In this document: piece by piece, positions 7,997-32,220 of the stretch
How the letters are laid out: the number at the start of each line of letters is the position of its first letter
Numbering within the stretch: the stretch's first letter is position 1
The notes under the pieces: generated by a model
The model's database searches: none
Told to the model about the DNA's origin: nothing
What the model saw: the letters and a program-made list of their open reading frames with translations, nothing else
Source of the DNA: Alistipes sp.
Lineage (GTDB): Bacteria; Bacteroidota; Bacteroidia; Bacteroidales; Rikenellaceae
Assembly: GCA_017505725.1 (NCBI GenBank)
Contig: JAFVOR010000076.1
Location: 1 to 32,361 of the forward strand
DNA length: 32,361 nucleotides
Reading direction: 5' to 3'
Position numbers and translations under genes: made by a program

Positions 7997-8021
7997 CATA
8001 TTAGTGATTTTGTGTTACGGA

Positions 8022-15598: not shown

Positions 15599-15624
15599 AA
15601 CGAGTAGTCACAATAGCAAAGCGA

Positions 15625-15662
15625 GTGAGTTCGACAATACAATGTCGGGCTCACTTTTTTTT
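15625..15662 (+). terminator. Rho-independent terminator after prs
   Basis: A 12-bp stem (15625-15636 with 15643-15654, two G-U pairs, 6-base loop) is followed by a run of eight T. It sits 26 bases after the prs stop and insulates the SusC/D locus from the genes before it. Confidence 0.9.
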
Positions 15663-15706: not shown

Positions 15707-15738
15707 TTTGAATATTTAACAAACATTCTCTAAATTTG
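15707..15738 (+). promoter_or_regulatory. Bacteroidetes-type promoter for the SusC/D-GLUG-phosphoesterase operon
   Basis: TTTG (15707-15710) and TAAATTTG (15731-15738) are separated by exactly 20 bases, a full consensus match in an AT-rich region right after the prs terminator. Predicted transcription starts near 15743-15746, giving a leader of about 75-110 bases depending on the start codon used. Confidence 0.8.
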
Positions 15739-15779
15739 TAGATGATTATTATAAATAATAACAAACAAAACATAAAAAC

Positions 15780-15819
15780 CTACTAAACTAATTAAAAAAA
15801 CTACTAAACTAATTAAAAA
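15780..15819 (+). repeat. Two-copy tandem repeat in the susC leader
   Basis: A 19-base unit beginning CTACTAAACTAATT occurs at 15780-15798 and again at 15801-15819 (period 21). It lies in the predicted 5' UTR between the promoter and the unclear start of the SusC gene. Each copy carries an in-frame stop relative to the SusC frame, so translation must start after it. Confidence 0.8.
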
Positions 15820-15855
15820 CCTATTTTTATTAGAATCTCTACTCAACGAGTTTTT

Positions 15856-18800
15856 GTGACTCTTTTGGTTGCGTTCTTTGCATTGTCCGCATCGGTTGCG
15901 ATGGCGGCACAGTCATCTGCGCAGCCTACAGAGGGAGGTGGAGCAGCGGCTCAACAGACAGCCGAAGCTTCGACCTCGAAGCCACACCTCGTATCGGGTG
16001 TCGTTCTTGACGAGAATGGCAAACCGATGGCGGGTGTGGGCGTAATCATCCCTACAACTTTGCAGGGTGTGGTCACCGACATCGATGGTAAGTACCAGAT
16101 TAAGGCGACACCCGAGCAGAGCATCGAGTTCAGCTTCCTCGGCTACAAGAGCGAGGTTGTGAAGGTTGGCTCACGCACCAACATCGACATCTCACTGAAG
16201 ACCGAGGCACAGGCCGTACAGTCGGTGGTTGTCACCGCACTCGGTATCAAGCGTGACGAGAAGTCGCTCGGTTATGCTGCACAGAAGATTGATGGCGATG
16301 TGGTATCGTCAGCAGCAAACTCATCGAACTGGCTCTCGGGCTTGACCGGTCAGGTGGCGGGTCTGAACATCCAGCAGTCGAACTCGGGCCCGGGCGGTAC
16401 AACCCGTGTAACACTCCGTGGTGAGTCGTCGGTGGACTTCAGCAACAACACCGCACTCTTCGTGGTGGATGGCGTGCCGATGTACAACCACTCGACACAG
16501 TCGGATGCAGGTGGCGAGGGTTCGGCCTATGCAATCGACTATGGTGATGGTACGGGCGATATCAACCCCGAGGATATCGAGAATATCACCGTTTTGAAGG
16601 GCCCTGCCGCAACCGCCCTTTATGGCTCGGCAGCAGCCAATGGTGCGATTGTCATCACCACCAAGTCGGCAGACAAGCTCGAATCGAAGATTAGCGTCAC
16701 CTACACCACAAACCTCACCTTCGAGAGCGTGAACACCTCGCCAGATTTGCAGTATGTATATGGTCAGGGCAGTAGCAATGACGACTATTACTACTACATC
16801 CGTCCCGAGGACAAGGCTTTGGGTTTGGCGTGGGACCCATATCCGACATACACATCTTCGCCAGGTCTTCTCTCGTGGGGTACCAAGATGGATGGTCGCG
16901 AGATGTATCAATTCTACCACCGAGGCTCAGGCATAGGTCTCACAACCGATGAATTGGGAGATGTTCGCCGTGTGGCTACCCCATTCGTAAGCTATGGCGA
17001 CTGGTTCAAGCAGTACTTCGAGACCGGCCACTCGTGGTCGAACTCGGTATCGGTGTCGGGCCGCATCAACAAGCGCAATCAGGTGCGTATCTCGGTGCGC
17101 GATATGCACAGCCAGGGCATCACCCCGAACTCGCCATACAACCGTCAGGACATCTCGTTGCGCTCGCGCAGTGAGGTTGCCAAGTGGTTCACTTCGGAGA
17201 TCTCGCTCAAGTACACCCGTCGCGACTACGACAATATCCCTGTATCGTCAGGTTATGGCTCAACTGCCATTATGTACAGTTTGTGGTGCTATGCGCCAAA
17301 CATCGATATGGATTGGGCAAAGAACTATTGGCTCGAAGGTCAAGAGGGTCTCAAGCAGGATGCAACCCTCACAGGTGGCAAGAACAACGCCTACTTCCTC
17401 GCACACGAGAGCGTCAACACACAGAACAAGGACCGTATCTACGGTAACTTGTCGCTCAATTTCGACATCTACAAGGGCTTGACCTTGATGGTACGCGGAG
17501 GTTTGGATGCAAACAACGATTTCCGTACACAGCGTACTCCGACCTCGACACAGGCCGATCCGAATGGTTACTATCGCGAGCAGAGCATCCGTTCGATGCA
17601 GTACTCGGGCGAGTTCCTCTTCCGATACACTCACGACTTCGACCACGACATCAACCTTACAGCAAACTTCGGTGGTAGCATTCTCAACCGTAGCTACTCG
17701 AAGCATCAGCAGTGGGCCGACGACTTGAAGTATCCGAGCATCTACACCTTGGCAAATGCCGAGTCGCTCGTCAAGACTACCAACGAATCGTATGTTCGTC
17801 AGACCAACTCACTCTACGGAATGGTGCAGCTCTCGTGGAAGAATGCTCTCTTCTTGGATATCACAGGCCGTAACGATTGGTCGAGCACTCTTCCTGCATC
17901 GAACCGCTCATACTTCTACCCATCGGTTTCGGGTAGCGTTGTGCTCAACGAGATTTGGGACTTTGGTCGCACAAATGGTCTCGTAAACCTTATGAAGGTG
18001 CGTGCATCGTGGGCACAGGTTGGTCACGACACCGCCCCTTACCGCATCGAGGAGTTCTTTGCAAGCACAATGTTCCCGGGCAATGTCACCACACAGTCGA
18101 AGAAGGTTAATGGTAGCCTCAAGCCGGAGATGGTATCGTCGTGGGAGGTGGGTCTCGACTTGAGAATGTTCCGCAACAGACTCAACCTCGATATCTCGTA
18201 CTACAACAGTAAGACCACTAACGCCCTTGCACAGATGCCTGTTTCGGCAGCTACGGGTGTTGACAATGTATTCACCAACGCAGGTTCGATTCGCAACCAG
18301 GGCGTCGAGATTTCGGCTACAGGTACCTTGATTCGTACCAAGGATATCCGCTGGACCGTAAATGCCAACTGGTCGATGAACCGCAACAAGGTGCTTCAGC
18401 TCGGTGACGGCATCGACTTCTGGCAGGTATCGCAGTACTCGTCGTGGGCATATATGTACGCCTACACTGGTGGCTCGTTGACCGCTATGTATGGTCGCCC
18501 ATACAAGCGTGCGCCTGAGGGTTCGTATGTGGTAGATTCGACAGGTCGAATGATTGATGTATCGGGACAGATTGTTCACGACATCAATGGTACTCCGATG
18601 GCAGACGAGAAGATGTCATACATCGGCGAGTGTTTGCCTGATTGGCGCGGTGGCTTCGGCACATCGTTCAGCTGGAAGGGACTCAAGTTCGGCATCAAGT
18701 TCGACGGACAGTATGGTGGCAATGTATGGTCGTTGACCAACTGGGTGCTCAACTATCGTGGTAAAGGTACTGCAACTCTCGAGGGTCGTGAGGGCGGTCT

Positions 18801-19182
18801 CAAGCCTCAGGGTGTAATCGAGCTCGCAGACGGAAACTACAAGATTTGCGACATCACACACGACAGAAACACCATTCAGTCATACTATCAGGCCAAGTAC
18901 GATCGTGGTTGTACCGAGGCCAACTTCGTGAGCACATCGTTCCTCAAGTTGCGCGAGGTGCGTCTCGAGTACTCGTTCCCACGCAAGCTGCTTGCAAAGA
19001 GCAAGGTTATTCAGAACCTCTCTATCGCAGTATTCGGCAACAACCTCTATTGTTGGAGCAAGTTCCCGGGATTCGATCCTGAGGCTGTTTCGATGCGTGG
19101 CGCAGCACTCTCGCCAGGTTTCGACCTTCTGCAGATGCCGGGCACAGCAACCTATGGAGGTAGCATTTCTATCACATTCTAA
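15856..19182 (+). CDS. SusC/RagA-type TonB-dependent outer-membrane transporter
   Basis: A 1108-residue (from GTG) SusC-family transporter. It carries out TonB-powered import across the outer membrane and forms a complex with its SusD lipoprotein. It has a hydrophobic export segment ending SVAMA, and a carboxypeptidase-regulatory-like domain (about 44-115, GVVLDENGKPMAGVGVII). Next come a TonB-box-like VQSVVVTALGIKRDEKSLGYA, a plug (about 145-270, LSGLTGQVAGLNIQQ and LRG, FVVDGVPM), and a 22-strand type barrel ending GGSISITF. The start is odd. No in-frame ATG exists after the stop at 15814, and the GTG at 15856 yields a signal peptide with no positive charge. Starting at ATT 15823 would restore a basic n-region (FIRISTQR), so the true start may be a non-standard codon. 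It is the first gene of the operon, with susD 17 bases after it. Confidence 0.92.
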   Translation: MTLLVAFFALSASVAMAAQSSAQPTEGGGAAAQQTAEASTSKPHLVSGVVLDENGKPMAGVGVIIPTTLQGVVTDIDGKYQIKATPEQSIEFSFLGYKSEVVKVGSRTNIDISLKTEAQAVQSVVVTALGIKRDEKSLGYAAQKIDGDVVSSAANSSNWLSGLTGQVAGLNIQQSNSGPGGTTRVTLRGESSVDFSNNTALFVVDGVPMYNHSTQSDAGGEGSAYAIDYGDGTGDINPEDIENITVLKGPAATALYGSAAANGAIVITTKSADKLESKISVTYTTNLTFESVNTSPDLQYVYGQGSSNDDYYYYIRPEDKALGLAWDPYPTYTSSPGLLSWGTKMDGREMYQFYHRGSGIGLTTDELGDVRRVATPFVSYGDWFKQYFETGHSWSNSVSVSGRINKRNQVRISVRDMHSQGITPNSPYNRQDISLRSRSEVAKWFTSEISLKYTRRDYDNIPVSSGYGSTAIMYSLWCYAPNIDMDWAKNYWLEGQEGLKQDATLTGGKNNAYFLAHESVNTQNKDRIYGNLSLNFDIYKGLTLMVRGGLDANNDFRTQRTPTSTQADPNGYYREQSIRSMQYSGEFLFRYTHDFDHDINLTANFGGSILNRSYSKHQQWADDLKYPSIYTLANAESLVKTTNESYVRQTNSLYGMVQLSWKNALFLDITGRNDWSSTLPASNRSYFYPSVSGSVVLNEIWDFGRTNGLVNLMKVRASWAQVGHDTAPYRIEEFFASTMFPGNVTTQSKKVNGSLKPEMVSSWEVGLDLRMFRNRLNLDISYYNSKTTNALAQMPVSAATGVDNVFTNAGSIRNQGVEISATGTLIRTKDIRWTVNANWSMNRNKVLQLGDGIDFWQVSQYSSWAYMYAYTGGSLTAMYGRPYKRAPEGSYVVDSTGRMIDVSGQIVHDINGTPMADEKMSYIGECLPDWRGGFGTSFSWKGLKFGIKFDGQYGGNVWSLTNWVLNYRGKGTATLEGREGGLKPQGVIELADGNYKICDITHDRNTIQSYYQAKYDRGCTEANFVSTSFLKLREVRLEYSFPRKLLAKSKVIQNLSIAVFGNNLYCWSKFPGFDPEAVSMRGAALSPGFDLLQMPGTATYGGSISITF

Positions 19183-19199
19183 CGATGGAGGAGATGAAT

Positions 19200-20900
19200 A
19201 TGAGAAAGACTATTAAATATTTTGCAGTAATTTTGGCTTCGGCCTTTGTGGTAGCGGGTTGCACCAAGTTCGATGATATGAACAAGAACCCATACGCACT
19301 ATACGAGGTGGAGGCGGAGTCGTTTGTTCAGCCAATCCTATACAACACGGCCTACACAAACACCTACAATAACTACTACATCAGCAGCGAGCTAATGCAG
19401 TATGCCATCAACACCAGCTTCGAGACCTCTGCTCTATTGACCTACAACTACGAACTTGCCGAGAACTACTCGAGCTACCTGTGGAGACTCTACAAGCAGT
19501 TTGGTAATGCGCAGTATATGCTCGAGCTTGCACGCAAGGGCGACAACCCTGCAATGGTGGGTGTGGCACTTGTACTCCGCAGCTATGTAGCATCAATTCT
19601 CACTGACGCCTATGGCGATGTGCCTTACTTCAACGCTGGTAAGATTTCGCTTCAGGGCAACGATTTCGACTACACCGTAGCCTACGACAAGCAGGAGGAT
19701 ATCTACATCGATATGCTTCGCTCGTTGGAGGAGGCCAATGCCTGCTTTGCCGAGGCAAAGAGTATGCGTGAGGCTGATGCGACCTTGGTAGTTGACTTCA
19801 GCCACGGTTGCGACTATATGTACGATGGTAACATCGACAAGTGGCACCGCTTCGGCAACTCGCTCTACTTGCGACTCTTGATGCACGCAGCACTCAAGGC
19901 GCAGGAGAATGGCGGCGTAATCTCGCTCGGCGACGAGTATGGCGACATTCAGGTGATTGCCAAGTTGAACGAGCTCTACGACTGCTACAAGTCGGGCGAT
20001 GGAGTCTACCCTATGATGCGTTCGATTAGCGACAGCGCGCGCGTTGAGTTCAGCTCGACCGATTCGGCACTCTACACTCCGTTCTACTCGACCACTAGTG
20101 GTAACTGGAATGCAAAGGCGGCCTGCTTGACCTTCACCGACTTGATGCTCATCGAGAAGGATAACGACAAGGATGGCGAGTGGGACCTCTACGATCCGCG
20201 CTACTTCCGCATCTTCACAAAGGCTATGGGCGCACCTACACAGATTCCGCTCACAGAGCTTGAGGACTACTTCAACTCCAACCTCTCGAAGGCGGGTAAC
20301 TCGCTGATTGGTCGCTTCACTCGCGGTACTGTGACAGGTACACACACAGGAGATCTTCAGAATGCTCCATCGTATGGTTTGCTCAACTACGACGAATTGT
20401 ACTTCCTCTTTGCCGAGGCGGGTGCTCGCGGTTGGCTCAGCATCGACGAGAAGAGCGTCAAGGATCTCTACCTGGAGGGTGTTCGTCAGTCTATCCTGCA
20501 GTGGCAGGTAGGTTTCGAGGGTGCTGTGGACTACCTGATGCCTACAGCTCAGGTAATCAGCGACTTCATCAAGTACCTCGACAACGATTTCGACTACAAC
20601 AAGATGCTCGAGAAGATTCTCACACAGAAGTATGTTGCTACATTCTGGGTAGGCATCGAGTCGTGGGTTGACTATCGCCGTACAGGCTACCCTATCCTCA
20701 AGACCAATGGTCGCACAGCGCAAAATGATGGTATTCTTCCAACCCGTATGCGCTACCCTGCAACCGAGGCATTCCAGAATGCAAAGCACTATAGCGATGC
20801 TGTAGCCGGCTGGTTGAAGGGCACAGACAATATGCAGACCGATGTTTGGTGGGCTTCGACAACCGAGAGCCAGAGCATCCGTCGTTTGGGTCGTCAATAA
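19200..20900 (+). CDS. SusD/RagB-like substrate-binding outer-membrane lipoprotein
   Basis: A 566-residue surface lipoprotein that forms the lid of the SusC channel and captures substrate. The lipoprotein signal has the lipobox VVAGC (Cys21). The N-terminal FDDMNKNPYALY, followed by helical TPR-like segments (YILSSELMQ-like region, RLYKQFGNAQYMLELARKG, ALVLRSYVASILTDAYGDVPYF) and the C-terminal ATFWVGIESWVDYRRTGYP, match the SusD-like_2 (nutrient-binding) branch. Two in-frame ATGs lie upstream (19185, 19194). ATG 19200 is chosen because a GGAGGAG element ends 6 bases before it and it gives a standard signal peptide. The family does not reveal the substrate; the phosphoesterases downstream are the main clue. 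Confidence 0.93.
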   Translation: MRKTIKYFAVILASAFVVAGCTKFDDMNKNPYALYEVEAESFVQPILYNTAYTNTYNNYYISSELMQYAINTSFETSALLTYNYELAENYSSYLWRLYKQFGNAQYMLELARKGDNPAMVGVALVLRSYVASILTDAYGDVPYFNAGKISLQGNDFDYTVAYDKQEDIYIDMLRSLEEANACFAEAKSMREADATLVVDFSHGCDYMYDGNIDKWHRFGNSLYLRLLMHAALKAQENGGVISLGDEYGDIQVIAKLNELYDCYKSGDGVYPMMRSISDSARVEFSSTDSALYTPFYSTTSGNWNAKAACLTFTDLMLIEKDNDKDGEWDLYDPRYFRIFTKAMGAPTQIPLTELEDYFNSNLSKAGNSLIGRFTRGTVTGTHTGDLQNAPSYGLLNYDELYFLFAEAGARGWLSIDEKSVKDLYLEGVRQSILQWQVGFEGAVDYLMPTAQVISDFIKYLDNDFDYNKMLEKILTQKYVATFWVGIESWVDYRRTGYPILKTNGRTAQNDGILPTRMRYPATEAFQNAKHYSDAVAGWLKGTDNMQTDVWWASTTESQSIRRLGRQ

Positions 20901-20921
20901 CAGAATAAACAGTTGAAAAAT

Positions 20922-23900
20922 ATGAAACGATACCTTATATATATAATGTCGGTTGTGGTACTGCTCTTTACGGGCTGTACCACCGACACTACCGACACTC
21001 CAAAGATGGAGGATGTTGGTCAAATGGAGCTTTCGGTAAGCATCGATGGCGAGAGTGTTCGCTCGCTTACCCTCCCATCATTCAACCACAATGTGGTGGT
21101 TGATGTGACACTCAACAACGAGAATATCTACTGGACTCCTGTAGCAAATCAGCCGTGGTGTCAGATTGTAGAGGAGGAGCACCGTGGTAGTGGCTCGTTC
21201 ACCATCAAGATTGAGCGCAACGACTCGTTCGAGGATCGTGCAACTGCAAAGATTAAGATTGTTGCAGGCGAGTACGAACAGGAGGTTCTCACAGTGGATC
21301 ACCTCGGCAATGTCTTCGTTATTGACAAGCCATACTTGGCAGTCAACAAGGCTGCAGGCACTATGAGCATCAAGGTGCAGAGCAAGCAGGGCTTGGAGTG
21401 GAGTGTTGAGCCTTGCGACTGGATCACAGCAACCAAGGGCGCAGAGACCGAGAGCGGTGAGTTTATCGTAACCGATGTAACCATCGCGTGGAACGAGAAT
21501 AGCGAGGCCTCGCGTTATGCCGAGATGGAGCTTCAGATCGAGGGTGTAAGCGGCAGCGACGGTAAGTTCTCGTTGTGGCAGTTTGGCACAGAGCACAACT
21601 ACGACGAGGAGGGACACATCTTGCTCCCTGCAAAGGATGCTGCTCCGCTCGAGTTACGAGCTCCGGAGAACACCATCAAAAACATAGTTTTGCCTAACTG
21701 GGTGACAGCTGCCGAGCCTGCAGTGAATGGCGACGGCACTGTATCGTATATGCTTTCGTTCAACGACAACCCAAGCGACGCACAGTTTATCCGCCCATCG
21801 CAGATTTCGCTCGAGATGGTAGCTACAGGTGCCGAGACAATTCTCTTGCCTGAGATTCGTCAGGAGTACTACTCTATCGGCGGTCTGCTCACAGGTGCAG
21901 GTTTGCAGCGTTTTGCCGAGGTATGGGCCGAGGGTGGCGACATCTCGTCGTGGTGCATCGATGGCGTACCTACACTGGTGGGTGATGTCGATATGTCACT
22001 CGTCGAGAATTGGACTCCAATCGGAACTCAGGAGAAGCCTTTCGACGGCAAGCTCAATGGTGCGGGTTACAAGATTCAGTACTTCAACTCGAATCAGCCA
22101 CTCTTTGGCTACTGCGAGGGTGCAGAGATTTCGAATCTCTCGTTCGACTCGACTTGCGAGATTGCACAGAAGGAGCCATTTGCGGGCGCAATCACCCTTG
22201 CTCCTTTGGCAGCAGAGTTGGGCGCAGGATGCGTTGTTTCGAACTGCTCGAGCTATGCAAGCGTCGTATTGGATAGCATTCCAAGCGCAGCCGACTACAA
22301 TTTATACCTCGGAGGTTTGGTTGGTAAGAGCGGTGAAAATGCTACCATCTCGAACTGCAAGTTCTATGGTACAATCACCACAGTTGAGCACGCAAAGCCT
22401 GCTATCACCGCTACCGACAACTCGAGAAGCTATATCGGTGGTGTTGTAGCAGCAAATAGCGGCCTTGTCGATGGTTGCACCAGCGAGGGCGTACTTACTG
22501 CAGCAGCATACTCTCGTTATTTCCATATGGGAGGTCTTGTAGCTCTTGCCGATGGTGCTACATCGGTTGTCAGCAACAATCGCAATGTATCGACTCTCAA
22601 CTACAACCTCAAGCGTCAGCTCAATGGCATCAACGACATCTCGCGCTATGGTTACGTGGGTGGCATCGTAGGTGCTGCAGATGGTAGTGTTGTGGGCAAC
22701 GAGAACGAAGGCGACATCATCTCGACCTCGAACATCAAGCTCCTCTACTTGGGAGGTATCGCAGCTCTGGTCAACAAGACCAATGTGATATTCCAGAACA
22801 ACAGCGTGGCTAACCGTGCCGACATTCAGTGTAATGGCGACGCTCGCTATGCTTATATGGGCTCGCTGATTGGATACATCAACAAGAGCATCACGCTCGA
22901 CTTCACCGAGGATACAGGCGTTATCAGCGGTTACATCCAACTCACAAAGAACGAGGCTGCATCTACAACCAAGACCGCTTTGGGTGGTATTATCGGTTAC
23001 GCCGATGGCGTCGATGCTGCTCTCACAGTGAAGCTTATTGCTCCGAAGTGGTCGGGTAAGATTCTCTACAACTTCGAGAACCGCAACTCCACCGCAGTAT
23101 ACAACGCAGCAGGTGGTATCGTAGGTTCTGCAATAGCTTGCACTGTCGAGATTGATGGCGCAGAGGTTACCGGCGACAACATCAGCTTCAAGGTTGTATC
23201 TAACACCAACACCCTTGTAGGCCGAGTTGCAACAGGTGGTATCGTTGGATACGCAGAGGGTTACGAAGGTCGATTGCCAAGCATCACAATTGCAAACTCC
23301 ACAAACCACACCCCTATCAACTGGAACACCTACAACAAGAAATCGAATGGTACACCTTCGTACTCGGGCGGTATCTTGGGTTGCGTTTTGGATGGTGAGA
23401 CCTCTATCACAAATTGCCACAACAAGGGCGACATCTACAATGGTCACTACAACAACAACGCATACACCTCAACCGTAGCAGGTTTGCGTACATCGATGTG
23501 TGCAACAGGTGGTATCGTAGGTGCAGCAGGCGTAGGTGCAGGCAGCACATCGAAGGTTGTTGTTTCGGGCTGCTCGAACACTGCAAATATCGACGCTTAT
23601 CGCGCTGCAGTGGGCGGCGTAGTAGGCTATGTAGTGAATGCTACCGTATCGGAGTGCTCGTTCACCGACAACAAGATTGGTAACCACGAGAGCTCCTATG
23701 CGGGAGGTATCGCAGGTGTTGCCGAGGCCTCGACTATCGAGAGTTGCAAGGCTGTGGCCAACATCAAGAGTACACAAGCCGGATCGTGCAACCCTCGCGC
23801 GGGTGGTATCGCAGGTTGGGCTATTGGCGAGGTTGAGATTTCGGGATGTAAGTATTTCGGTAATCTCACTATCGGCAAAACAACCCTTGCTCGTCCTGCC

Positions 23901-24128: not shown

Positions 24129-24155
24129 ACAAACTGTAAAACGATAAACAAAAAG

Positions 24156-24293
24156 ATGAAAAAGAGTATTATGCAGACCTCTGCAGCCTATGAGAGACCT
24201 ATGGTCGAGGTTGTAGAGGTGGTGACCGAGAGAGGATTCGAGACATCCTCGCAAATGGACGATATGAACGAATCGGAAGGCTCGTGGTATTAA
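24156..24293 (+). CDS. 45-residue acidic small protein, function unknown
   Basis: A small gene encoding 45 residues, starting MKKSIMQTSAAYERPMVEVV, then EVVTERGFETSSQMDDM and ending NESEGSWY. The start is preceded by an A-rich stretch as in neighbouring genes, with 27 bases after the BACON-GLUG stop and 24 bases before the fimbrillin-GLUG start. This spacing fits the operon. The pattern (Lys-rich start, Tyr-x-x-Pro-x-Val-Glu-Val, Glu-x-Gly-Phe, acidic tail with Trp) resembles small proteins I recall from other Bacteroidales surface loci, usually labelled hypothetical. It has no signal peptide or membrane segment. It could be a regulatory or chaperone-like peptide, or a peptide precursor; nothing here decides. 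Confidence 0.72.
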   Translation: MKKSIMQTSAAYERPMVEVVEVVTERGFETSSQMDDMNESEGSWY

Positions 24294-24317
24294 TCAACAA
24301 CTAAAAAAGGAGAAAAG

Positions 24318-27300
24318 ATGAAAAATATTTTTAGAAGTGTTGCAGCCCTTGTCGTAGTTTTGTTCGCAGGCTGTACAACAGAACCTATTGAAGATACCAT
24401 TGCGCCAAGCGTAGATGGTGGTACTACCGTCGTGACATTCGACTTGGGCGAGAGCCGCACCTCGTTGGGTGATTTGGACGACAACAACCGTCGCAAGGTG
24501 CTTTGGAGCGCAGGCGACAAGATCGCCATCAATGGCGTAACCTCTGCCGAGGCGGTCATCAGCGAGGAGAATCCTGCTTTGGCATCGTTCTCGTTCGATG
24601 GCACATTGGCATACCCTTACAACGCACTCTACCCTGCAGCATTCTACAAGGATGAGGCTACAATCACTCTCCCTGCGACACAGGATGTAGGCGTGGGTAC
24701 ATTCGCTACAAACACACTCCCAATGGCTTCGCACATCGGCGAGGGCGAGGCGGCAACATTGCACCACATTGCTGGCGCATTGCGCTTCCGCATCAAGCAG
24801 GCGGCAGCCGAGGGTGCTGACGCTCACAAGATTCACCATTTGGAGTTCCGTGGCAACAATGGCGAGCAGTTGTCGGGCGATTTCGCTATCGACTACGCAA
24901 ACCTTTCCCTCACCTCTGCTTCAGTTGCCGAGGCTGACAAGGTTGTTGCAACCAAGGTCAACGCCAATAGCTCGAAGGAGCAGGATTTGGATGTGTTTGT
25001 GGTAGTACCGGCTCGCACCTACGAGAAGGGCTTCACTCTCCGCATCATCGACGAGAATGGCCACTATATGGATGTCAAGAGCGAGATTTCGCAGACTATC
25101 GCAAAGGGCGAGATTAAGGCTATGCCATCGGTAGAGTTTGTTCCTACGGGCACACTCGTAAATGTGGAGATTAAGAGCGCAGCCGAGCTTGTAGCATTCG
25201 CAAAGGAGTACAACACAGGTAAGTACAGTACTATCGATCCTTTCGTAGTGAACATTGCCGAGGATATCGTGTTCGACGATGCAACAAACGCTGAGTGGGA
25301 GCCAATCGGCAATGTACTTTCAGACGAGTCGACTAACTACTTTCACGGCATATTGGAAGGAAACAACCACTTGATTAAGAATTGGAAAACATCTCGCCCT
25401 CTGTTCGCCTACACAGGTAGCGGTTCGTTGATCAAGGATCTGACTATTGATGCTTCGTGCGTGCTTACAGCAAACTTCGCTGACGGAGTGGAGTATACCG
25501 CAGGTTTCGTAGGTTATCACCGCGGTGATTTGTACAACTGCGTAAACAATGCAGCTATCACGGCAACCGGTGCCTGGAGCAAAGATGCGTATGTTGCAGG
25601 TTTGGCTGGTCGAGTTGTTGTAGGTAAGGTTGAGAACTGCTCGATGAACGGTAACATCACCATCGACGAGAACTTCAAGGTTGCCGGTGCTATATATGTG
25701 GGTGGTCTTGTAGGTCGCGTGTCGAACGCTGATGGCGAGATTCTAAATTCACACTATACAGCAACAATTAGTTTTGCAGGAGGCTCTTCAGAAGCAGACA
25801 AGAAAGGTTATATCGGAGGTATCGCAGGATGCAATGCCGGTACAGTCAAAGGCTGCACCAACGGAGTGGATATGAGTGTTATTGGTTCTCACACAACAAA
25901 CTATATTAAAACCATTTACTGGGGTGGTATTGTAGGATATATCAGCGAAGATGCAACCGTAAGCGAGTGTGTGAATAACTCTATCGTAAAATTGACATAT
26001 CAGAGAAATAGCGACGCTACACGCTATCTCTATATGGGAGGTATCGCAGGCTTCGTTGATCAAAATGCAACCATAAAGGATTGCGACAACGCAGCCGAGG
26101 TTCAGAGTCGTTCGGCTTGTAAGACTATTTCGATTGGCGGTATCGTTGGTCACGCAGAGACTGACTCTGTAATCGAAGGTTGCAATAACACAAGCGTCGT
26201 ATCGGCTCGAACAAGCAGTGCAGGTTCTTACGGAGGTCGCTACCTCTCGATTGGAGGTATTATCGGAGCGTGTGAAACATCTAATGTTTCGAATGTATTG
26301 AACTCTGGTACAATTGCAGTATCGAGGAGTGAAAGCAACCTCACTGCTAACATCTGTGTAGGTGGTTGCATCGGTGAGTTGCTGACAGCTCTCGATGGTA
26401 AGAACACCGTCGCAAATAGTGGTGCATTGGAGTTCTCCGACACATCAACTAATCGCTCGTTCCTCGGAGTGGGAGGTGTTGTAGGTGTTATCAACAAGGC
26501 CGGTGCAAATCTTTCGAATGTTTCGAATAGCGGAGCTGTTGCAGACAAGGCTACTACACTACACACCAACGCATTTATCGGAGGCGTTGTAGGTCTTATC
26601 CGACACGCTGCAACCGTTTCGGGTGCAACAAACAATGGCCAGGTATCTTTTGCCGACGTCACCAAGACTCACGTAAACCTCGGTATGGGAGGTATTGTTG
26701 GAGGTGTTGGAAATTACGCCTATAGCGAAGAAGTTGTTGTTGAGACTCTTGTAACCGCACACATCGAGAACTCCATTAACAATGGTAAGGTTGTAATTAC
26801 CAAGAATGGTGTATCGCCAAACTTTGCAGCAGGAGGTGTAGTTGGAATCATCAAGGGAGCAGGTTCTTCGGTAACTAATTGCGAGAATACGGCTCACATT
26901 GACTGCCGCGTATCGAACAACGGTTACAACGACGAGGCATTGGATACAACCATTCCATCTCAATTCGACGCAAACAATGTTATCGTAGCCAACACAAGTG
27001 CTACTTGTGCAGCCGGTATAGCAGGATTCGCACTCGGTACCGAGGGCGCACCTCTTCAAATTACAAACTGCAAGAGTACAGGCACAACCTATCCTATTCA
27101 GTCGTACCGTGGTTATACAGGCGGTATCGTAGGATATGCTCGCTATGCAGCTATCGCAGATTGCAGCAACGTTACAACCGTATCGTCGGCAAACACAAGC
27201 AACCGTTGCGGTGGTATCGCAGGATACATCCACACTTCGACAATCACCAATAGTACAGCAACGTGCAAAGTCGATGGCGTTAAGAACACTTATAGTGGCG

Positions 27301-27548
27301 GTATTGCAGGAGGTATGAACGCTACATCTGCAATTAGCTCGTCGAAGTTCAACGGCACGGTGACTGCATCAGGAAACGCCGGCACAAAGTTGGGTGCTAT
27401 TGTTGCATATTCGGCAGTAGGTGCTACCATTACCGATTGCGGAGCCAAGGGTCAGATTGGTTTCACAACCAATCTTGCAAATATCACCGTAGATACATTC
27501 TGCGGCGATGCTAACGCAACTATCACAGGTTCGTATATCCTCGAATAA
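24318..27548 (+). CDS. Fimbrillin-like and GLUG-repeat surface lipoprotein
   Basis: A 1076-residue lipoprotein (lipobox LFAGC, Cys19). Residues about 35-280 follow the fimbrillin-family (Mfa-like) pattern: ESRTSLGDLDDNNRRKVLWS, GDKIAINGVTSAEAV, YPYNALYPAAFY, LHHIAGALRFRI and DVFVVVPARTYEKGFTLRI. Next comes the pre-repeat module shared with its neighbours (about 287-375: ELVAFAKEYN, AEWEPIGNV, KNWKTSRPLF, LTIDASC). About 18 GLUG-like repeats follow (393-1047), for example YVGGLVGRVS and YTGGIVGYARYAAIADCSN. The fimbrillin-type N-terminus suggests a surface or even pilus-like display, but no Mfa/Fim assembly genes are in the window. No catalytic residues are seen. It is followed by a strong hairpin. 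Confidence 0.85.
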   Translation: MKNIFRSVAALVVVLFAGCTTEPIEDTIAPSVDGGTTVVTFDLGESRTSLGDLDDNNRRKVLWSAGDKIAINGVTSAEAVISEENPALASFSFDGTLAYPYNALYPAAFYKDEATITLPATQDVGVGTFATNTLPMASHIGEGEAATLHHIAGALRFRIKQAAAEGADAHKIHHLEFRGNNGEQLSGDFAIDYANLSLTSASVAEADKVVATKVNANSSKEQDLDVFVVVPARTYEKGFTLRIIDENGHYMDVKSEISQTIAKGEIKAMPSVEFVPTGTLVNVEIKSAAELVAFAKEYNTGKYSTIDPFVVNIAEDIVFDDATNAEWEPIGNVLSDESTNYFHGILEGNNHLIKNWKTSRPLFAYTGSGSLIKDLTIDASCVLTANFADGVEYTAGFVGYHRGDLYNCVNNAAITATGAWSKDAYVAGLAGRVVVGKVENCSMNGNITIDENFKVAGAIYVGGLVGRVSNADGEILNSHYTATISFAGGSSEADKKGYIGGIAGCNAGTVKGCTNGVDMSVIGSHTTNYIKTIYWGGIVGYISEDATVSECVNNSIVKLTYQRNSDATRYLYMGGIAGFVDQNATIKDCDNAAEVQSRSACKTISIGGIVGHAETDSVIEGCNNTSVVSARTSSAGSYGGRYLSIGGIIGACETSNVSNVLNSGTIAVSRSESNLTANICVGGCIGELLTALDGKNTVANSGALEFSDTSTNRSFLGVGGVVGVINKAGANLSNVSNSGAVADKATTLHTNAFIGGVVGLIRHAATVSGATNNGQVSFADVTKTHVNLGMGGIVGGVGNYAYSEEVVVETLVTAHIENSINNGKVVITKNGVSPNFAAGGVVGIIKGAGSSVTNCENTAHIDCRVSNNGYNDEALDTTIPSQFDANNVIVANTSATCAAGIAGFALGTEGAPLQITNCKSTGTTYPIQSYRGYTGGIVGYARYAAIADCSNVTTVSSANTSNRCGGIAGYIHTSTITNSTATCKVDGVKNTYSGGIAGGMNATSAISSSKFNGTVTASGNAGTKLGAIVAYSAVGATITDCGAKGQIGFTTNLANITVDTFCGDANATITGSYILE
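25494..27458 (+). repeat. GLUG-like repeat array, copy B (about 18 units)
   Basis: Within the fimbrillin-GLUG gene, about 18 units with GG-I-V-G cores and endings such as NCVNNAAI, ECVNNSIV, DCDNAAEV, NVSNSGAV and NCENTAHI. Units are mostly 30-40 residues. The DNA cores (GGAGGTATCGCAGG, GGTGGTATCGCAGGA) recur here and are shared with copies A and C. Confidence 0.8.
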
Positions 27549-27555
27549 TTTATAT

Positions 27556-27596
27556 AAAACCCATTGTCGGGCTTTAGAAGCTCGACAATGGGTTTT
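27556..27596 (+). terminator. Strong intercistronic hairpin/terminator inside the operon
   Basis: A 19-bp stem (27556-27574 with 27578-27596, one G-U pair, 3-base loop TAG) whose right arm ends in a run of five T. It lies 7 bases after the fimbrillin-GLUG stop and 28 bases before the phosphoesterase start. It should stop or attenuate transcription, or protect the 3' end of the upstream messages. No consensus promoter is seen between it and the next gene. Confidence 0.85.
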
Positions 27597-27624
27597 TACA
27601 CAAAAGCTAATAGCTGAAAAAGAG

Positions 27625-29340
27625 ATGAAACGACTTTTAATCCCAATTTTAACCCTTCTTTTCGCTCTCGCCTGTACGCCCGACAATGGCGGTGATGGCG
27701 GAGGCTCAAACGGTGGCGGCTACAAGCCAACCGGCAAAATAACCGTCAAAGGTACGGTGTATGGTGGCGATGGACCACTCAACGATGTGGTAGTGTCGGA
27801 TGGTCTGATTTGCGTAAAGACAAATGCAAATGGCTATTTCGAGATGGATACCGACCTCGCAAATGCAAAGTTTGTGATGGTCAGCACACCTGCGGGCTAC
27901 GCTGCTCCTATTGACGAGGAGACCAAGGTACCCCTCTTCTTCCACCGCATCACCTCCGAGGAGCGCAAGGCCGATCTTTGCGTTGCTCGATTCAACCTTG
28001 TGAAGATAACCGATAGCGATCCTAATCGCTATACGATGATTATAGGTGCTGATCCTCAACCGCGTGCGTCGAGTGCTAATTTCGACAAGAACGCATACCA
28101 CGCACTCGACATCTGCAAGGATCTCTACCGCGATATGCGCGAAACTGCCGCCAACATCACCGACCGCGAGGTCTATGGTATGATGCTCGGCGACATTGTT
28201 CACGAGAATATGGGTCTGTTCACAAACTATATCAACGATGGTTTGAAGACTCTCGGATTCCCTGTATTCAATGTGATAGGCAACCACGACAACGACAAGA
28301 GCGCTGCCGACGATGTGCAGGGTCGTCGCAAGTTCGAGGAGCACTTTGGTCCAACCTACTACTCGTTCAACATCGGCAAGCAGCACTATATCGTGTTGGA
28401 CAATCTCATTATGAAGAAGGAGGGCAACAACCTCACAGCCTACGATCAGGGACTAACCGACGAGATTTGGCAGTGGATGGAGAACGATCTCCGCTATGTG
28501 GACCGCTCGACCACTATTATGGTGGCAGCACACTCGCCTATGTTTATGCTGACCGATCTCTCCGACCGCAGTCAGAGTGGCGGCACACATCACGGTAAGG
28601 ACTACTCTACCCTGCTTGCAAAGTATGCCAAGGTGCACGCTTGGGCAGGTCACACCCACACTACATTCAACTACAACTACGAGGCTGGTCACCGCTTCGA
28701 GAATATCGAGGTGCACACCCTCGCACGCTCAACAGGAGAGTTGTGGACAAACGAGTATTTGGCAAACGGTACACCACGCGGATATACCGTTGTAGAGGTC
28801 GATGGCGACGAGATTGAGTGGTACTTCAAGCCTACCGAGTATCAGACCGCCAAGTATACGGGCTCGACCAAGCCGCAGCCTACATTCGCTCATCGCGACT
28901 ACACATTCAACGAGAGTGGCGTGGCTATGCTCGATGGCAAGAAGCTCTCGGCTGATTACCAGATGAAGGTCTACGCTCCGGGCACCTACACCGACACATA
29001 CGCAAACCTCGTGGAGAACAAGGGTTCGAAATCGAAATATATCTATGTGGATGTCTTCTACTGGGACAACAAGTGGGAGAAGCCAAAGTACAACGGAGCG
29101 ACTATGTCGCAAGTGGTAGCAAAGGATGCCTATTCGTTGGCCAACTACGAGTTGAAGAACCACTACTACACCTATGGCTATACACTCAAGGAGAGCACAG
29201 ATTACTTCGATCCAAACCCGAAGGCTAAGACACTTTATCACACCCTCTTCCGAGCATACGAATCGAAGGATAGTGGCACTGGTACGGTAACAGTCAAGGA
29301 TCGCTTTGGCAACGAGTACTCGAGGACCATTTCGTGGTAA
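27625..29340 (+). CDS. Calcineurin-like metallophosphoesterase lipoprotein
   Basis: A 571-residue probable lipoprotein (signal with ALAC, Cys17, then a Gly/Asp-rich tether). It has a MetallophosN-type beta domain (about 35-125, ITVKGTVYGGDGPLNDVVVSD), a calcineurin-type catalytic domain (about 135-350) and a MetallophosC-type beta domain to the end. Metal ligands are in place: Asp143 in GADPQ, Asp190 in LGDIVHE, Asn220-His221 in GNHDND, His303 in AAHSP, and His343/His345 in GHTH. Such enzymes cleave phosphomonoesters or diesters. ATG 27625 is chosen for the signal peptide; an upstream in-frame extension would run through the hairpin. It is the near twin of the C-terminal half of the next protein. 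Substrate unknown. Confidence 0.88.
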   Translation: MKRLLIPILTLLFALACTPDNGGDGGGSNGGGYKPTGKITVKGTVYGGDGPLNDVVVSDGLICVKTNANGYFEMDTDLANAKFVMVSTPAGYAAPIDEETKVPLFFHRITSEERKADLCVARFNLVKITDSDPNRYTMIIGADPQPRASSANFDKNAYHALDICKDLYRDMRETAANITDREVYGMMLGDIVHENMGLFTNYINDGLKTLGFPVFNVIGNHDNDKSAADDVQGRRKFEEHFGPTYYSFNIGKQHYIVLDNLIMKKEGNNLTAYDQGLTDEIWQWMENDLRYVDRSTTIMVAAHSPMFMLTDLSDRSQSGGTHHGKDYSTLLAKYAKVHAWAGHTHTTFNYNYEAGHRFENIEVHTLARSTGELWTNEYLANGTPRGYTVVEVDGDEIEWYFKPTEYQTAKYTGSTKPQPTFAHRDYTFNESGVAMLDGKKLSADYQMKVYAPGTYTDTYANLVENKGSKSKYIYVDVFYWDNKWEKPKYNGATMSQVVAKDAYSLANYELKNHYYTYGYTLKESTDYFDPNPKAKTLYHTLFRAYESKDSGTGTVTVKDRFGNEYSRTISW

Positions 29341-29364
29341 GAAACCAACTAATACTCAACTTAT

Positions 29365-32220
29365 ATGAACTACATCAAGAGATTATCAATCTTTGCGATA
29401 CTCCTGCTCTCCGTCATTGCGGTGTATGCAGGTGGTATCAAGGATGCACAGCAATTGGTTGCCTTCGTGACGGCCATCAACCAGGGTGGCGACTACTCTG
29501 CCTTCAAGAACGACAAGGGCGTAGTATGTCTCGAGGCCGATATCGATATGGCGAAGGTGAAGAAGTTCCAGCCGATCAAGTCATTCGGTGGCACATTCGA
29601 TGGCCAGGGCTTCGCCTTGAAGAATTGGAAGGCGCAGAGCGGTCTCTTCCACGAGATTCTCGAGGGCGGTAAGGTGCTAAACCTCCGCATCGACGCTTCG
29701 TGCTCGATGAAGGCACAGAACAAGAGCGGTGAGTACTTCGTAGGATGGATTGCCGACATCAATAGCGGACAGATCGAGAATTGCGAAAACCACGCTCCGT
29801 TGGCTCACAAGTCGAACTACACCGACAAGGATCTCTACATCGGAGGTCTTGTAGGTTCGAATCGTTATGTCATCTACAACTGCCGCAACTATGGCGAAAT
29901 CACATCGGTTTGCATCTCGAGCAAGTTCGAGACACAGGTACTCCGCTTGGGCGGTATCGCAGGTGGTGCCTATCCAAAGAGTGTGTCTTGTGCCACAATA
30001 GCTCGTTGCGAGAATCACGGTAAGGTGGCCTACGCCGGCGATATGCCTTACGACCGCGTGGGAGGTATCGTGGGTGAGGCGTTCAAGACCACAACCAAGA
30101 TGTGTATCAATCGCGGCGCAGTATCGTCGCAGTCGAATCTCGGCGAGGAGGGCAAGATTGGCGACTCGTGGGTGGCAGGTGTTGTAGCCTACACCAAGTT
30201 CGATGTTATCTGCTGCGACAACTTCGGCACAGTATCGAGCACAGGTTGTCACCGCACAAATGCTGCGGGTATCGTGGGTATGCCTCATAGCAAGATGGTT
30301 ATTGCAGACTGCACCAACTTCGGCAAGATTGAGACATCGAACGAAAGCCCTGCGAATATGGGTGGCGTAGTGGCTACAATTCGTCGCGAGGTGCACCTTA
30401 TCAATGGCGTAAATCGTGGTCACATCTACTTTGCAGGCTCGAGCCCTCGCTCGGCATCATACATCGGAGGCGTTGTGGGTAGTATCCACACAGTACGCAC
30501 CAGCAAGACAAGTGCCTACCTCCGTCGTTGCGTAAACTATGGTAAGGTGGAGAGCCTTTCGGGCGGTAACAACTACGAGAACCACGACAACTCGATACAT
30601 ACGGGTGGTATCGTGGGCAAATCGTCGGGTACAGCTATTGCCATTGCCACCATTCTCGACTGCTACAACAAGGGTGAGGTGAAGGCTGCTACGGGTCGTA
30701 GAAACGACTTTGCAGGCCGCGTCATTGCAACCGATATCCGTGGCGAGTGGTTCGACAACAACTACGCTACCCCTTGTCAGCCAATGACCGATGGAGCAAC
30801 TCTCTATGGTCGCGTGACCGACACACAGGGCAACGCCGTAGTGGGTTGCGTGGTGTCGGATGGTAAGCAGTGCGTAACTACAAACAACGATGGCTACTAC
30901 TCGATGAAGAGTGATATGGCATCGGCTCGTTTTGTGCAGATTTCGATTCCTGCCGACTACAAGTTGCCTCACCGCAAGAGCGTGATGCAGATATTCCGCC
31001 GCATACCTCGCTACCAGCAGGCTGCCTCGGCAAACTTCTGCCTCGAGCGTCGCACCGAGCCAACCGACAAGTACACTGTGATTATGATTGGTGACCCTCA
31101 GATGCGTGGTCTTGGTCACGACGGTTCGGGTGAGCGTTACCGCGATGTGGTATTGCCCGATATCGAGAAGTTCAAGTCAACTACAAAGGGAGAGTTCTTC
31201 GCCATCAACCTCGGTGACCTGGTCTACAACTGGATGGCGGGCTACGACGACTATATGGATATCAGCACATCGTGTTCCTACCCTATGTGCCACATCATCG
31301 GTAACCACGACTACGACCAGAGCAACATACTCGAGACCGCACTCGGAACACCCTATTTCGAGGAGTACATTTCGCCAATATACTACTCTTTCAACATCGG
31401 CAAGATTCACTATGTGATGGTCAACAGCATCGTCTACAACCGTGCCGACCACACCAAGCGTTATGGCGCAGGCCTGGAGGATGAGCAGATGAAGTGGCTC
31501 GAGGAGGATTTGAAGTTCGTACCGAAGGATCACACCATCTACATCTGTGGTCACGCGCAGCTCTACAAGAAAAAGGGCACCTCGCCAAAGGGCTCCTACG
31601 GAATGTACAATGTGAACTACGAGCGATACAACAACCTGCTCAAGCAGTTCAAGCGTGTCTACTCGTGGTCGGGACACTACCACACAAATCACGGTTTTGA
31701 TTATGCCGGCAAGAAGGGCTTCGAGGATATGGGACACATCTCGGCAATTGCGGTGGCTCGTTGCAACGGTACATTGCGCTCGAACCTCGAGTTGGACAAT
31801 GACGGAACGCCAAACGGATATATGGTAGTGAATGTCGATGGCGAGAATATCGACTGGTACTACAAGACCATAGGCAAGGACCGCAGCTACCAGATGCGCG
31901 CATACTCCCCTACCCGCACAGGCGACGGATATGTCAAGGTAAACATCTGGAACTACACGCAGGGCTACTGGAGCGATGTCGAGTGGTGGGAGAATGGCAC
32001 AAAGGTTGCAACATTCGAGAAGTTCGCAGAGGCAGACCCTGACTATCTGCTTATGCACGCAACACGACTCACACACTTGAAGGGTACGGCGGCAAAATAT
32101 GCCAAACCGACCAATTCGGACTATATGTTCCGTGTGAAGCCAAGCGAGGGTGCTCGCTCGGGCGAAATCCGCGTAACAGACAACTTTGGCGTTACCTACA
32201 CCGAAAAGATTGAGTGGTAA
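29365..32220 (+). CDS. GLUG-repeat/calcineurin-like phosphoesterase fusion, exported
   Basis: A 951-residue fusion protein. The signal peptide ends VYA (about residue 22) with no lipobox. The pre-repeat module is at about 26-115 (DIDMAKVKKFQPI, GGTFDGQGFALKNW, LRIDASC). Nine GLUG-like units follow (124-439), with strikingly regular endings: NCRNYGEI, RCENHGKV, MCINRGAV, DCTNFGKI, RCVNYGKV, DCYNKGEV. MetallophosN (about 478-560), the catalytic domain (about 570-775) and a C-terminal beta domain complete it. Ligands present are Asp577 (GDPQ), Asp618 (LGDLVYN), Asn647-His648 (GNHDYD), His730 (CGHAQ) and His771/His773 (GHYH), so it should be active. It is 24 bases after the lipoprotein paralogue. 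The solenoid probably targets the enzyme to the same ligand bound by the other GLUG proteins. Confidence 0.88.
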   Translation: MNYIKRLSIFAILLLSVIAVYAGGIKDAQQLVAFVTAINQGGDYSAFKNDKGVVCLEADIDMAKVKKFQPIKSFGGTFDGQGFALKNWKAQSGLFHEILEGGKVLNLRIDASCSMKAQNKSGEYFVGWIADINSGQIENCENHAPLAHKSNYTDKDLYIGGLVGSNRYVIYNCRNYGEITSVCISSKFETQVLRLGGIAGGAYPKSVSCATIARCENHGKVAYAGDMPYDRVGGIVGEAFKTTTKMCINRGAVSSQSNLGEEGKIGDSWVAGVVAYTKFDVICCDNFGTVSSTGCHRTNAAGIVGMPHSKMVIADCTNFGKIETSNESPANMGGVVATIRREVHLINGVNRGHIYFAGSSPRSASYIGGVVGSIHTVRTSKTSAYLRRCVNYGKVESLSGGNNYENHDNSIHTGGIVGKSSGTAIAIATILDCYNKGEVKAATGRRNDFAGRVIATDIRGEWFDNNYATPCQPMTDGATLYGRVTDTQGNAVVGCVVSDGKQCVTTNNDGYYSMKSDMASARFVQISIPADYKLPHRKSVMQIFRRIPRYQQAASANFCLERRTEPTDKYTVIMIGDPQMRGLGHDGSGERYRDVVLPDIEKFKSTTKGEFFAINLGDLVYNWMAGYDDYMDISTSCSYPMCHIIGNHDYDQSNILETALGTPYFEEYISPIYYSFNIGKIHYVMVNSIVYNRADHTKRYGAGLEDEQMKWLEEDLKFVPKDHTIYICGHAQLYKKKGTSPKGSYGMYNVNYERYNNLLKQFKRVYSWSGHYHTNHGFDYAGKKGFEDMGHISAIAVARCNGTLRSNLELDNDGTPNGYMVVNVDGENIDWYYKTIGKDRSYQMRAYSPTRTGDGYVKVNIWNYTQGYWSDVEWWENGTKVATFEKFAEADPDYLLMHATRLTHLKGTAAKYAKPTNSDYMFRVKPSEGARSGEIRVTDNFGVTYTEKIEW
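29734..30681 (+). repeat. GLUG-like repeat array, copy C (nine units)
   Basis: Nine units in the fusion gene with the ending C-x-N-x-G-x-[IV/L]. Eight of nine keep the Cys, and the seventh (LINGVNRGHI) replaces it. This is the most regular of the three arrays and the best source for a consensus. Confidence 0.8.

What the first reader, a model, noticed from the sequence alone, without database searches (positions are those of the whole stretch)
15707..32220. SusC/D operon built from GLUG solenoids and phosphoesterases, with no carbohydrate enzymes
Seen: one promoter, seven same-strand genes with gaps of 17-76 bases, and a SusC/SusD pair followed by three GLUG-repeat proteins, two phosphoesterase modules and a 45-residue peptide. 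There is no glycosidase, lyase, sulfatase, protease or regulator. Known: SusC/D pairs import products of surface enzymes, and calcineurin-like enzymes cleave phosphoesters. Inference: this is a surface phosphoester-scavenging system, with GLUG proteins holding a large phosphate-bearing ligand (teichoic acid, phosphoglycan, nucleic acid, phytate-like) and the phosphoesterases releasing what SusC imports. I do not know a described system with this exact make-up.
Basis: partly seen in the sequence, partly recalled or inferred. Interest (0 to 1): 0.8.

Follow-up and report, generated by a model that had tools for sequence, protein, structure and literature searches.

The report
SusC/D locus for phosphate-linked polymers
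A gut bacterium's outer-membrane import operon carries surface-binding proteins and phosphoester-cutting enzymes where sugar-cutting enzymes usually stand, and some relatives of the operon add genes of the kinds that carry and convert sugar phosphates, so it may feed on a phosphate-linked polymer.

Summary
The anatomy is real: seven same-strand genes (SusC, SusD, BACON-GLUG protein, 45-aa peptide, fimbrillin-GLUG protein, MetallophosN/C lipoprotein, secreted GLUG+MetallophosN/C fusion) behind one Bacteroidetes-type promoter match. The set is conserved: of 15 SusD relatives in 131 genus genomes, 13 have a phosphoesterase of this family in the same cluster and two lie on cut contigs. In two relatives the last gene is split into adjacent GLUG and phosphoesterase genes. 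Clues to function come from orthologues, not the window: three carry an organophosphate-antiporter-type transporter and an Exo_endo_phos gene, two of them also a ManNAc-6-P epimerase and a phosphosugar mutase. This favours uptake of phosphorylated sugars from a phosphodiester-linked polymer; the ligand is unproven. Corrections: the contig ends 141 bases after the last gene and some orthologues continue into GH3, GH97 or an FAD oxidoreductase, so 'no carbohydrate enzymes' cannot be asserted; 12 of 14 phosphoesterase genes of this family in the genome are not beside SusC/D. SusCD-phosphoesterase loci (PUS) are already described in Flavobacterium. Verdict: new variant of a known kind. Side finding: poly-G tracts in several orthologous susC genes suggest phase variation.

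The parts
15623..15656 (+). terminator-like stem-loop and T run between the preceding PRPP-synthetase-like gene and the operon
   Evidence: 14-pair stem
15707..15738 (+). Bacteroidetes-type promoter match TTTG-N20-TAAATTTG
   Evidence: consensus recalled; 4 of 2000 Markov shuffles match
15829..19182 (+). SusC/RagA TonB-dependent transporter; start at ATT 15829 by homology (tool-listed GTG start 15856)
   Evidence: best solved relative BT_2264
19185..20900 (+). SusD-like lipoprotein, Pfam SusD-like_2
   Evidence: N-terminus ...VVAGCTKFDDMNKNP
20913..24128 (+). protein A: BACON + GLUG lipoprotein (first ATG 20922)
24156..24293 (+). 45-aa peptide, found at this position in 5 orthologous operons
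24318..27548 (+). protein B: fimbrillin-like domain + GLUG beta-solenoid, lipoprotein
   Evidence: Pfam; AlphaFold2 mean pLDDT 82.1; Foldseek hits to Bacteroides fimbrial proteins and IgA1 proteases
27625..29340 (+). protein C: MetallophosN + calcineurin-like phosphoesterase + MetallophosC lipoprotein
   Evidence: motif residues invariant in the 8 sequences aligned
29365..32220 (+). protein D: GLUG solenoid fused to MetallophosN/catalytic/MetallophosC; signal-peptide-like N-terminus without an obvious lipobox (by eye)
   Evidence: matched by two neighbouring genes in G054 and G002:C4

Best explanation
A phosphorus-flavoured counterpart of a polysaccharide utilisation locus. Proposed working: lipoproteins A and B (GLUG beta-solenoids on BACON or fimbrillin-like bases) and SusD hold a large phosphodiester-linked ligand at the surface; lipoprotein phosphoesterase C cuts it there into shorter pieces; SusC/D take them through the outer membrane; secreted D, whose GLUG solenoid is joined to a second phosphoesterase, finishes the cutting in the periplasm; the sugar- or glycerol-phosphate products enter the cytosol through an organophosphate antiporter-type (OPA) transporter and, in the relatives that encode them, an epimerase and a mutase feed them into amino-sugar metabolism. 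Shown: gene content, conservation, domain make-up, retention of the metal-site motifs, OPA/EEP/NanE/mutase genes inside some orthologous operons, an OPA-type gene elsewhere in this genome. Inferred: cell location of each protein, diesterase rather than monoesterase action, the polymer's identity (an amino-sugar-phosphate or glycerol-phosphate polymer such as a teichoic-acid- or capsule-like glycan is my leading guess).
For: Conserved linkage: 13 of 15 SusD relatives (E<=1e-40, 131 genus genomes) have a MetallophosN/C gene in the cluster; the other 2 are on contigs that end inside A or B. OPA-type transporter + Exo_endo_phos genes in the operons of G002:C6, G026 and G054; NanE (NF002231, 238 and 251 bits, cut-off 189) and a GlmM-like mutase in G002:C6 and G026. 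Less related SusC-phosphoesterase clusters: G126 has a GlpT-like gene (605 bits, glpT cut-off 632.55; over the cut-off of subfamily TIGR00881) between SusD and two phosphoesterases with a GH31 between them; G045 has a GlpT-like and a glycerol-3-phosphate-dehydrogenase-like gene beside two phosphoesterases and SusC/D. NAGPA phosphodiester-glycosidase genes lie in 2 clusters with a phosphoesterase of this family (L099, L122). Catalytic part of D: best folds are purple acid phosphatase, glycerophosphodiesterase GpdQ (TM 0.54 by target length) and SMPDL3A. Residues D143, Q145, D190, N220, H221, H303, H343, H345 of C are invariant in 8 sequences, and D577, Q579, D618, N647, H648, H730, H771, H773 of D in 12. 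This genome has an OPA-type gene next to a GDPD-like gene, outside the operon.
Against: OPA, EEP, NanE and mutase genes were not found in the operon stretches of the window and of G078, G047, G057 and G070. Three related operons carry GH3, GH97, GDSL or FAD oxidoreductase genes right after D, and two SusC-phosphoesterase clusters with another SusD type carry GH31, as in carbohydrate loci. 12 of 14 family phosphoesterases in this genome stand apart from SusC/D. The OPA-type proteins of G002, G054 and G000 are below all curated cut-offs of the GlpT/UhpT/PgtP models, so their substrate is unknown; the GDPD-like protein is below its cut-off too. Active-site loops of the D model have pLDDT under 50, so the fold does not tell mono- from diesterase. 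No expression or activity data.
Confidence: 0.55

Rival explanations
1. An ordinary carbohydrate locus with accessory phosphatases: the ligand is a glycan with phosphate decorations, the glycosidases are downstream of the contig end or elsewhere, and C and D only remove phosphate caps.
For: GH3 60 bases after D in G047, FAD_oxidored+GH97 after D in L123, GDSL+BACON-LRR+FAD_oxidored in G057:C19; GH31 in two more distant SusC-phosphoesterase clusters; GH36 gene at 11740-13971 of the window.
Against: The enzymes differ between orthologues while the phosphoesterases stay; in G002:C6 and G002:C4 an opposite-strand gene follows the last phosphoesterase; OPA-type transporters and NanE belong to families that handle sugar phosphates.
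Confidence: 0.22
2. A Pho-regulon phosphate-scavenging system like Flavobacterium PUS: the point is Pi, not carbon; induced by phosphate starvation.
For: PUS loci are SusCD pairs with PME/PDE genes and no CAZymes, some with inner-membrane transporters for organic phosphorus (PMC8115612, passages).
Against: NanE and mutase genes in two orthologues point to use of the organic part; FecR/ECF genes in some orthologues suggest ligand-driven control. No Pho-box search was made, so regulation is open.
Confidence: 0.12
3. A surface adhesion or host-interaction set: fimbrillin/GLUG adhesins with phosphoesterases that act on host nucleotides or lipids, SusC/D only adjacent.
For: B's N-terminal part folds like Bacteroides fimbrial proteins and its GLUG part like IgA1 proteases; orphan Fim+GLUG and Fim+phosphoesterase genes in this genome.
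Against: SusC and SusD accompany the set in the 13 uncut clusters, and SusC is a full-length TonB-linked transporter.
Confidence: 0.08

Closest known systems
Phosphate utilisation systems (PUSI/PUSII, PusCD) of Flavobacterium (PMC8115612; abstract and passages seen)
   Same: SusCD-like pair co-located with phosphomono/diesterases and not with CAZymes; proposed uptake of organic phosphorus across the outer membrane.
   Different: PUSI/PUSII enzymes there are periplasmic PDEs or PhoA1, induced by Pi depletion; here they are MetallophosN/C proteins, one a lipoprotein, one fused to a GLUG solenoid; this SusD is SusD-like_2 where the tabulated PusD1/D2 are SusD_RagB/SusD-like_3; regulation here is unknown.
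Polysaccharide utilisation loci (Sus-like)
   Same: SusC/SusD pair, further lipoproteins, a lipoprotein and a secreted enzyme, FecR/ECF genes in some orthologues.
   Different: No CAZyme within the held operon; phosphoesterases take their place; OPA-type transporters in some orthologues.
RagAB / BT_2264 peptide importers (peptide ligand recalled)
   Same: BT_2264 is by far the best solved relative of the SusC (365 bits against 138 for the next).
   Different: No peptidase domain in the seven genes; one relative, G078, has a C10 peptidase gene about 430 bases after D.
GpdQ and SMPDL3A calcineurin-fold phosphodiesterases
   Same: Best fold matches of D's catalytic part together with purple acid phosphatase.
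   Different: C and D have Asp-Pro-Gln in the first metal motif instead of Asp-x-His (canonical form recalled) and carry MetallophosN/C domains.

Membership tests
Phosphate utilisation system (PUS) | SusCD-like pair in one gene cluster with phosphoesterases | tested here: met
Phosphate utilisation system (PUS) | no CAZymes in the cluster | tested here: inconclusive
   none in the seven genes, but the contig ends 141 bases after D and some relatives continue into GH3 or GH97
Phosphate utilisation system (PUS) | induced by Pi depletion only | not testable with these tools
   needs expression data
Phosphate utilisation system (PUS) | inner-membrane transporter for organic phosphorus in the cluster (seen in some PUS) | tested here: inconclusive
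   OPA-type gene in orthologues G002:C6, G026, G054 but not in the window operon
Polysaccharide utilisation locus | SusC and SusD genes adjacent | tested here: met
Polysaccharide utilisation locus | glycan-degrading enzyme in the locus | tested here: inconclusive
   no glycosidase or lyase domain in the seven genes; held sequence ends after D and relatives vary
RagAB-type peptide importer | peptidase in the locus | tested here: not met
   no peptidase domain in the seven genes
RagAB-type peptide importer | peptide ligand | not testable with these tools
   needs binding or structure data
Calcineurin-like phosphoesterase, MetallophosN/C type | PF16371 and PF16370 above cut-off, calcineurin fold, metal-site motifs kept | tested here: met
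   for D, PF00149 itself is not reported at E 0.01, the fold and motifs are seen

The most novel reading that the evidence does not exclude
A gut Bacteroidales system dedicated to importing and using sugar phosphates intact from a phosphodiester-backbone glycan (for instance a ManNAc- or GlcNAc-phosphate polymer of other gut microbes), with GLUG beta-solenoids as the polymer-holding parts outside and inside the outer membrane, and with SusC under slipped-strand (poly-G) on/off control in several species.
Probability: 0.27. Interest if true: 0.75.

Novelty: new variant of a known kind. Interest (0 to 1): 0.55.

Why it matters
If right, it shows that SusC/D loci of gut bacteria can be built around cutting phosphodiester bonds rather than glycosidic bonds, suggests a role for MetallophosN/C and GLUG proteins, and offers a way to test whether teichoic-acid- or capsule-like phosphopolymers of neighbouring microbes are food. 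It also names a strain with a related operon (Alistipes montrealensis kh20) in which this could be tested.

Tried and rejected
Considered and rejected: chance neighbours (conserved set); BT_2264-like peptide uptake (no peptidase in the seven genes). The weak sequence hits of D and C to purple acid phosphatase chains (6git, 6gja) were not taken as evidence for phytate. The two NAGPA genes of this genome are on C56, where the MetallophosC search found nothing. My first ORF picker let long antisense ORFs hide real genes in some loci; redone with HMM priority. The linked/unlinked labels were wrong for stretches fetched in two pieces (7 rows relabelled) and four contig-cut rows were set aside; redone (53 linked, 21 unlinked, 4 set aside of 78 rows); 12 loci that repeat G-handle records were left out of the tree. 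dN/dS of the peptide could be computed for 6 of 15 pairs (dN<dS in these 6). Paper searches without a relevant hit: (terms too broad); one search listed 9 general microbiome papers. Profile search of B against solved structures: nothing. Structure comparison by VIA-align was not available. No phage, plasmid, viral or E. coli collection was searched.
Full report
What is there. The window is a whole contig (C67, 32,361 bases) of a 105-contig genome, 85% complete. Genomes with its genus code have contigs equal in length to records titled Alistipes sp., Rikenellaceae bacterium, Candidatus Alistipes excrementipullorum and Alistipes montrealensis, so it is probably an Alistipes-type gut species. The operon at 15707-32220 is as described, with corrected gaps (2, 12, 27, 24, 76, 24) and a susC frame that begins at an ATT (15829) where orthologues have ATG. 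Pfam: SusC domains, SusD-like_2, BACON+GLUG, GLUG, MetallophosN/Metallophos/MetallophosC, GLUG+MetallophosN+MetallophosC.

Is it more than chance? Yes. SusD was sought in 131 genus genomes: 15 matches at E<=1e-40 in 13 genomes. In 13 of the 15 a MetallophosN/C gene lies in the same cluster; the two others (G031:C82, G026:C155) are on contigs that end inside the B or A gene, and matching pieces lie on other contigs of the same genomes. 14 of the 15 clusters hold a protein with at least three GLUG-like repeats by regular expression, G088 being the exception. The tight group (window, G078, G047, G057 twice, G070, G002:C6, and pieces in G031 and G026) keeps the order SusC-SusD-A-B-C-D; G002:C6 has four more genes between B and C; G078, G047, one G057 copy and G070 have one or two fimbrillin+phosphoesterase genes between C and D. 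L123 and L126, titled Bacteroidales bacterium (goat rectum, sheep rumen), have similar sets. In a sample of 393 genomes of the order no other genome had a match along the whole of D at E<=1e-60; three matched its phosphoesterase half only, and one other had a SusD at E<=1e-50. So the set is lineage-limited but stable there.

The last gene as a fusion. D is one 951-aa protein here. In G054:C6 and G002:C4 its GLUG half (39% identity each, residues 4-461 and 7-451) and its phosphoesterase half (48% and 45%) are matched by neighbouring genes. Fused in some and adjacent in others is good evidence that solenoid and enzyme work together.

The 45-aa peptide. An ORF of the form Y-x-x-P ... G-F-x-x-S ... 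D-x-M-x-E-x-x-G-x-W lies between A and B in the window and in 5 of 6 other A-B gaps looked at (not found in the 125-base gap of G057:C19; G031, G026, G054 and G002:C4 were not looked at; a stretch before C in L123 gave an unrelated ORF). dN is below dS in the 6 of 15 pairs that can be computed. It is probably a real gene, of unknown role.

The enzymes. In C (8 sequences) and D (12 sequences) eight metal-site-type residues of the calcineurin fold are invariant, with Asp-Pro-Gln in the first motif. The D model has mean pLDDT 77.6, but loops around the metal site are under 50. Its best solved matches are purple acid phosphatase, the glycerophosphodiesterase GpdQ and SMPDL3A. C has a lipoprotein-type N-terminus (A-C, invariant in the 8 aligned). 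D starts with a signal-peptide-like stretch without an obvious lipobox in the 12 aligned, judged by eye. I read this as a surface enzyme and a secreted, probably periplasmic, one; location is inference.

The holders. B was modelled with mean pLDDT 82.1, its solenoid mostly over 80. Foldseek's best matches are Bacteroides fimbrial/cell-adhesion proteins (3sy6, 3t2l, 3ufi; about 280-310 columns) and IgA1 proteases (440-500 columns). I take the first for the N-terminal part and the second for the GLUG part.

Clues to the ligand, all from relatives. G002:C6 has, between B and C, four genes in a row: an MFS protein whose best NCBIfam hits are PgtP, UhpC, GlpT and UhpT (222, 182, 151, 127 bits, all under the curated cut-offs), an Exo_endo_phos protein, a ManNAc-6-P 2-epimerase (238 bits, cut-off 189) and a GlmM-like phosphosugar mutase (under its cut-offs). 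G026 has the same four (83, 75, 85 and 81% identity) on one fragment, between a GLUG piece and a phosphoesterase piece. G054 has an ECF sigma gene, an Exo_endo_phos gene and an OPA-type gene right after the split D. Among less related clusters, G126 has a GlpT-like gene between SusD and two phosphoesterases, and G045 a GlpT-like and a glycerol-3-phosphate-dehydrogenase-like gene next to phosphoesterases and SusC/D. NAGPA (phosphodiester glycosidase) genes lie near a phosphoesterase of this family in L099 and L122. The window's own genome has an OPA-type gene at C44:5058-6455 next to a GDPD-like gene and a BglX-type GH3 gene; G047 shows the same neighbourhood by the look of its ORFs. These genes fit a ligand whose products enter as organophosphates. 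They are not in the window operon nor in the operon stretches of G078, G047, G057 and G070, so the step to the window is inference.

Against. Right after D, on the same strand and at gaps of about 20-60 bases, G047 has a GH3, G057:C19 a GDSL, a BACON-LRR and an FAD oxidoreductase, and L123 an FAD oxidoreductase and a GH97; G078 has a C10 peptidase about 430 bases on. Two clusters with SusD_RagB-type SusD carry GH31. In this genome 17 MetallophosC matches fall in 14 genes, and only the two of the window are beside SusC/D in the stretches held; four of the other twelve lie close to a contig end (C72 twice, C74, C7), and the one at C44:46.7-49.5 kb is 12 kb from a SusC at C44:61.7 kb. On a tree of 78 phosphoesterase domains linkage needs 13 changes after label correction, so it is gained or lost often; in the C and D clades the deepest branches are linked and this genome's orphan relatives (in L056, L057, L064) lie inside (quick tree, SH-aLRT support only). 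Five genomes of the tight group (G000, G078, G047, G057, G070) have 4-6 SusC genes each at E<=1e-100, G054 has 42.

Known or new. SusCD loci with phosphoesterases and without CAZymes are described in Flavobacterium as phosphate utilisation systems (PMC8115612; abstract and passages seen). I found no paper that joins GLUG, MetallophosN/C and SusC/D (searches; open-licence PubMed Central papers only, and 16 used terms too broad to be a good test). PhoB of Bacteroides fragilis is described (PMC3547664; two passages), with no such locus in what I saw.

Side finding: poly-G in susC. A run of 9-10 G lies in the 5' coding part of susC in G078, G047, G057:C27, G031 and G070, and a run of 9 C in that of G054: 6 of 11 operon susC genes looked at; the window, G057:C19, G026 and both G002 copies have none of 8 or more there. 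Of 18 other susC 5' regions of five of these genomes, 1 has such a run (G047:C8). Fisher p = 0.0055, but orthologues are not independent and the two sets come from partly different genomes. As assembled the run leaves the signal peptide in frame with the barrel in G078 and out of frame in G047 and G057:C27. Over the loci annotated, 10 of 22 distinct G/C runs of 8 or more in 1.21 Mb (some records held twice, loci chosen for SusC or phosphoesterase genes) lie in the first ~450 bases of a susC. Slipped-strand phase variation is the natural reading; assembly error at homopolymers is not excluded. A search for papers with Alistipes, phase variation and homopolymer found none; SusC/D phase variation by a DNA invertase is known (reference entry seen).

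Noticed in passing
L136:6659 (+), L137 and L138 (reverse strand 1727 and 370), L135 (reverse strand 11), L080:9489, L088:16765; the window has an interrupted GAGGGAGGTGGA instead: Poly-G (one poly-C) tracts of 9-10 in the 5' coding part of 6 of 11 orthologous susC genes, out of frame as assembled in two of them: possible slipped-strand phase variation.
   Followed up: partly
window 15829-15831: susC frame begins at ATT where orthologues have ATG: a rare start codon or a sequence difference.
   Followed up: partly
window 24156-24293: 45-aa peptide with a conserved pattern, found between A and B in five relatives; role unknown.
   Followed up: partly
G000 contigs C7, C15, C44, C66, C72, C74 (L056, L057, L059, L060, L062-L064): Many MetallophosN/C genes, several fused to fimbrillin-like or GLUG parts, away from SusC/D; listed genus members range from 0 to 19 MetallophosC matches.
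   Followed up: partly
window 11740-13971: GH36 alpha-galactosidase-type gene, separated from the operon by a GTPase-like and a PRPP-synthetase-like gene (by eye) and a terminator-like stem.
   Followed up: no
L099:5099-6115 and L122:12884-13927: NAGPA-type phosphodiester glycosidase genes in clusters that also hold a MetallophosN/C phosphoesterase; L099 also has a sialate-O-acetylesterase-type (SASA) gene.
   Followed up: no
L119, L120, L124, L125: Near-identical cluster in four MAG records with SusC/SusD pairs on both sides of one MetallophosN/C gene (L125 holds one side only); in L119, beta-propeller proteins (BACON or fn3) and an AP_endonuc_2-type gene.
   Followed up: no
L103:5626-8237: N-acylglucosamine 2-epimerase gene (NCBIfam over cut-off) directly before a MetallophosN/C gene and an FAD oxidoreductase gene.
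   Followed up: no
window 7469-7999 (-): Small protein whose sequence (YDVFISYSRKD...) looks like a TIR domain; judged by eye only.
   Followed up: no
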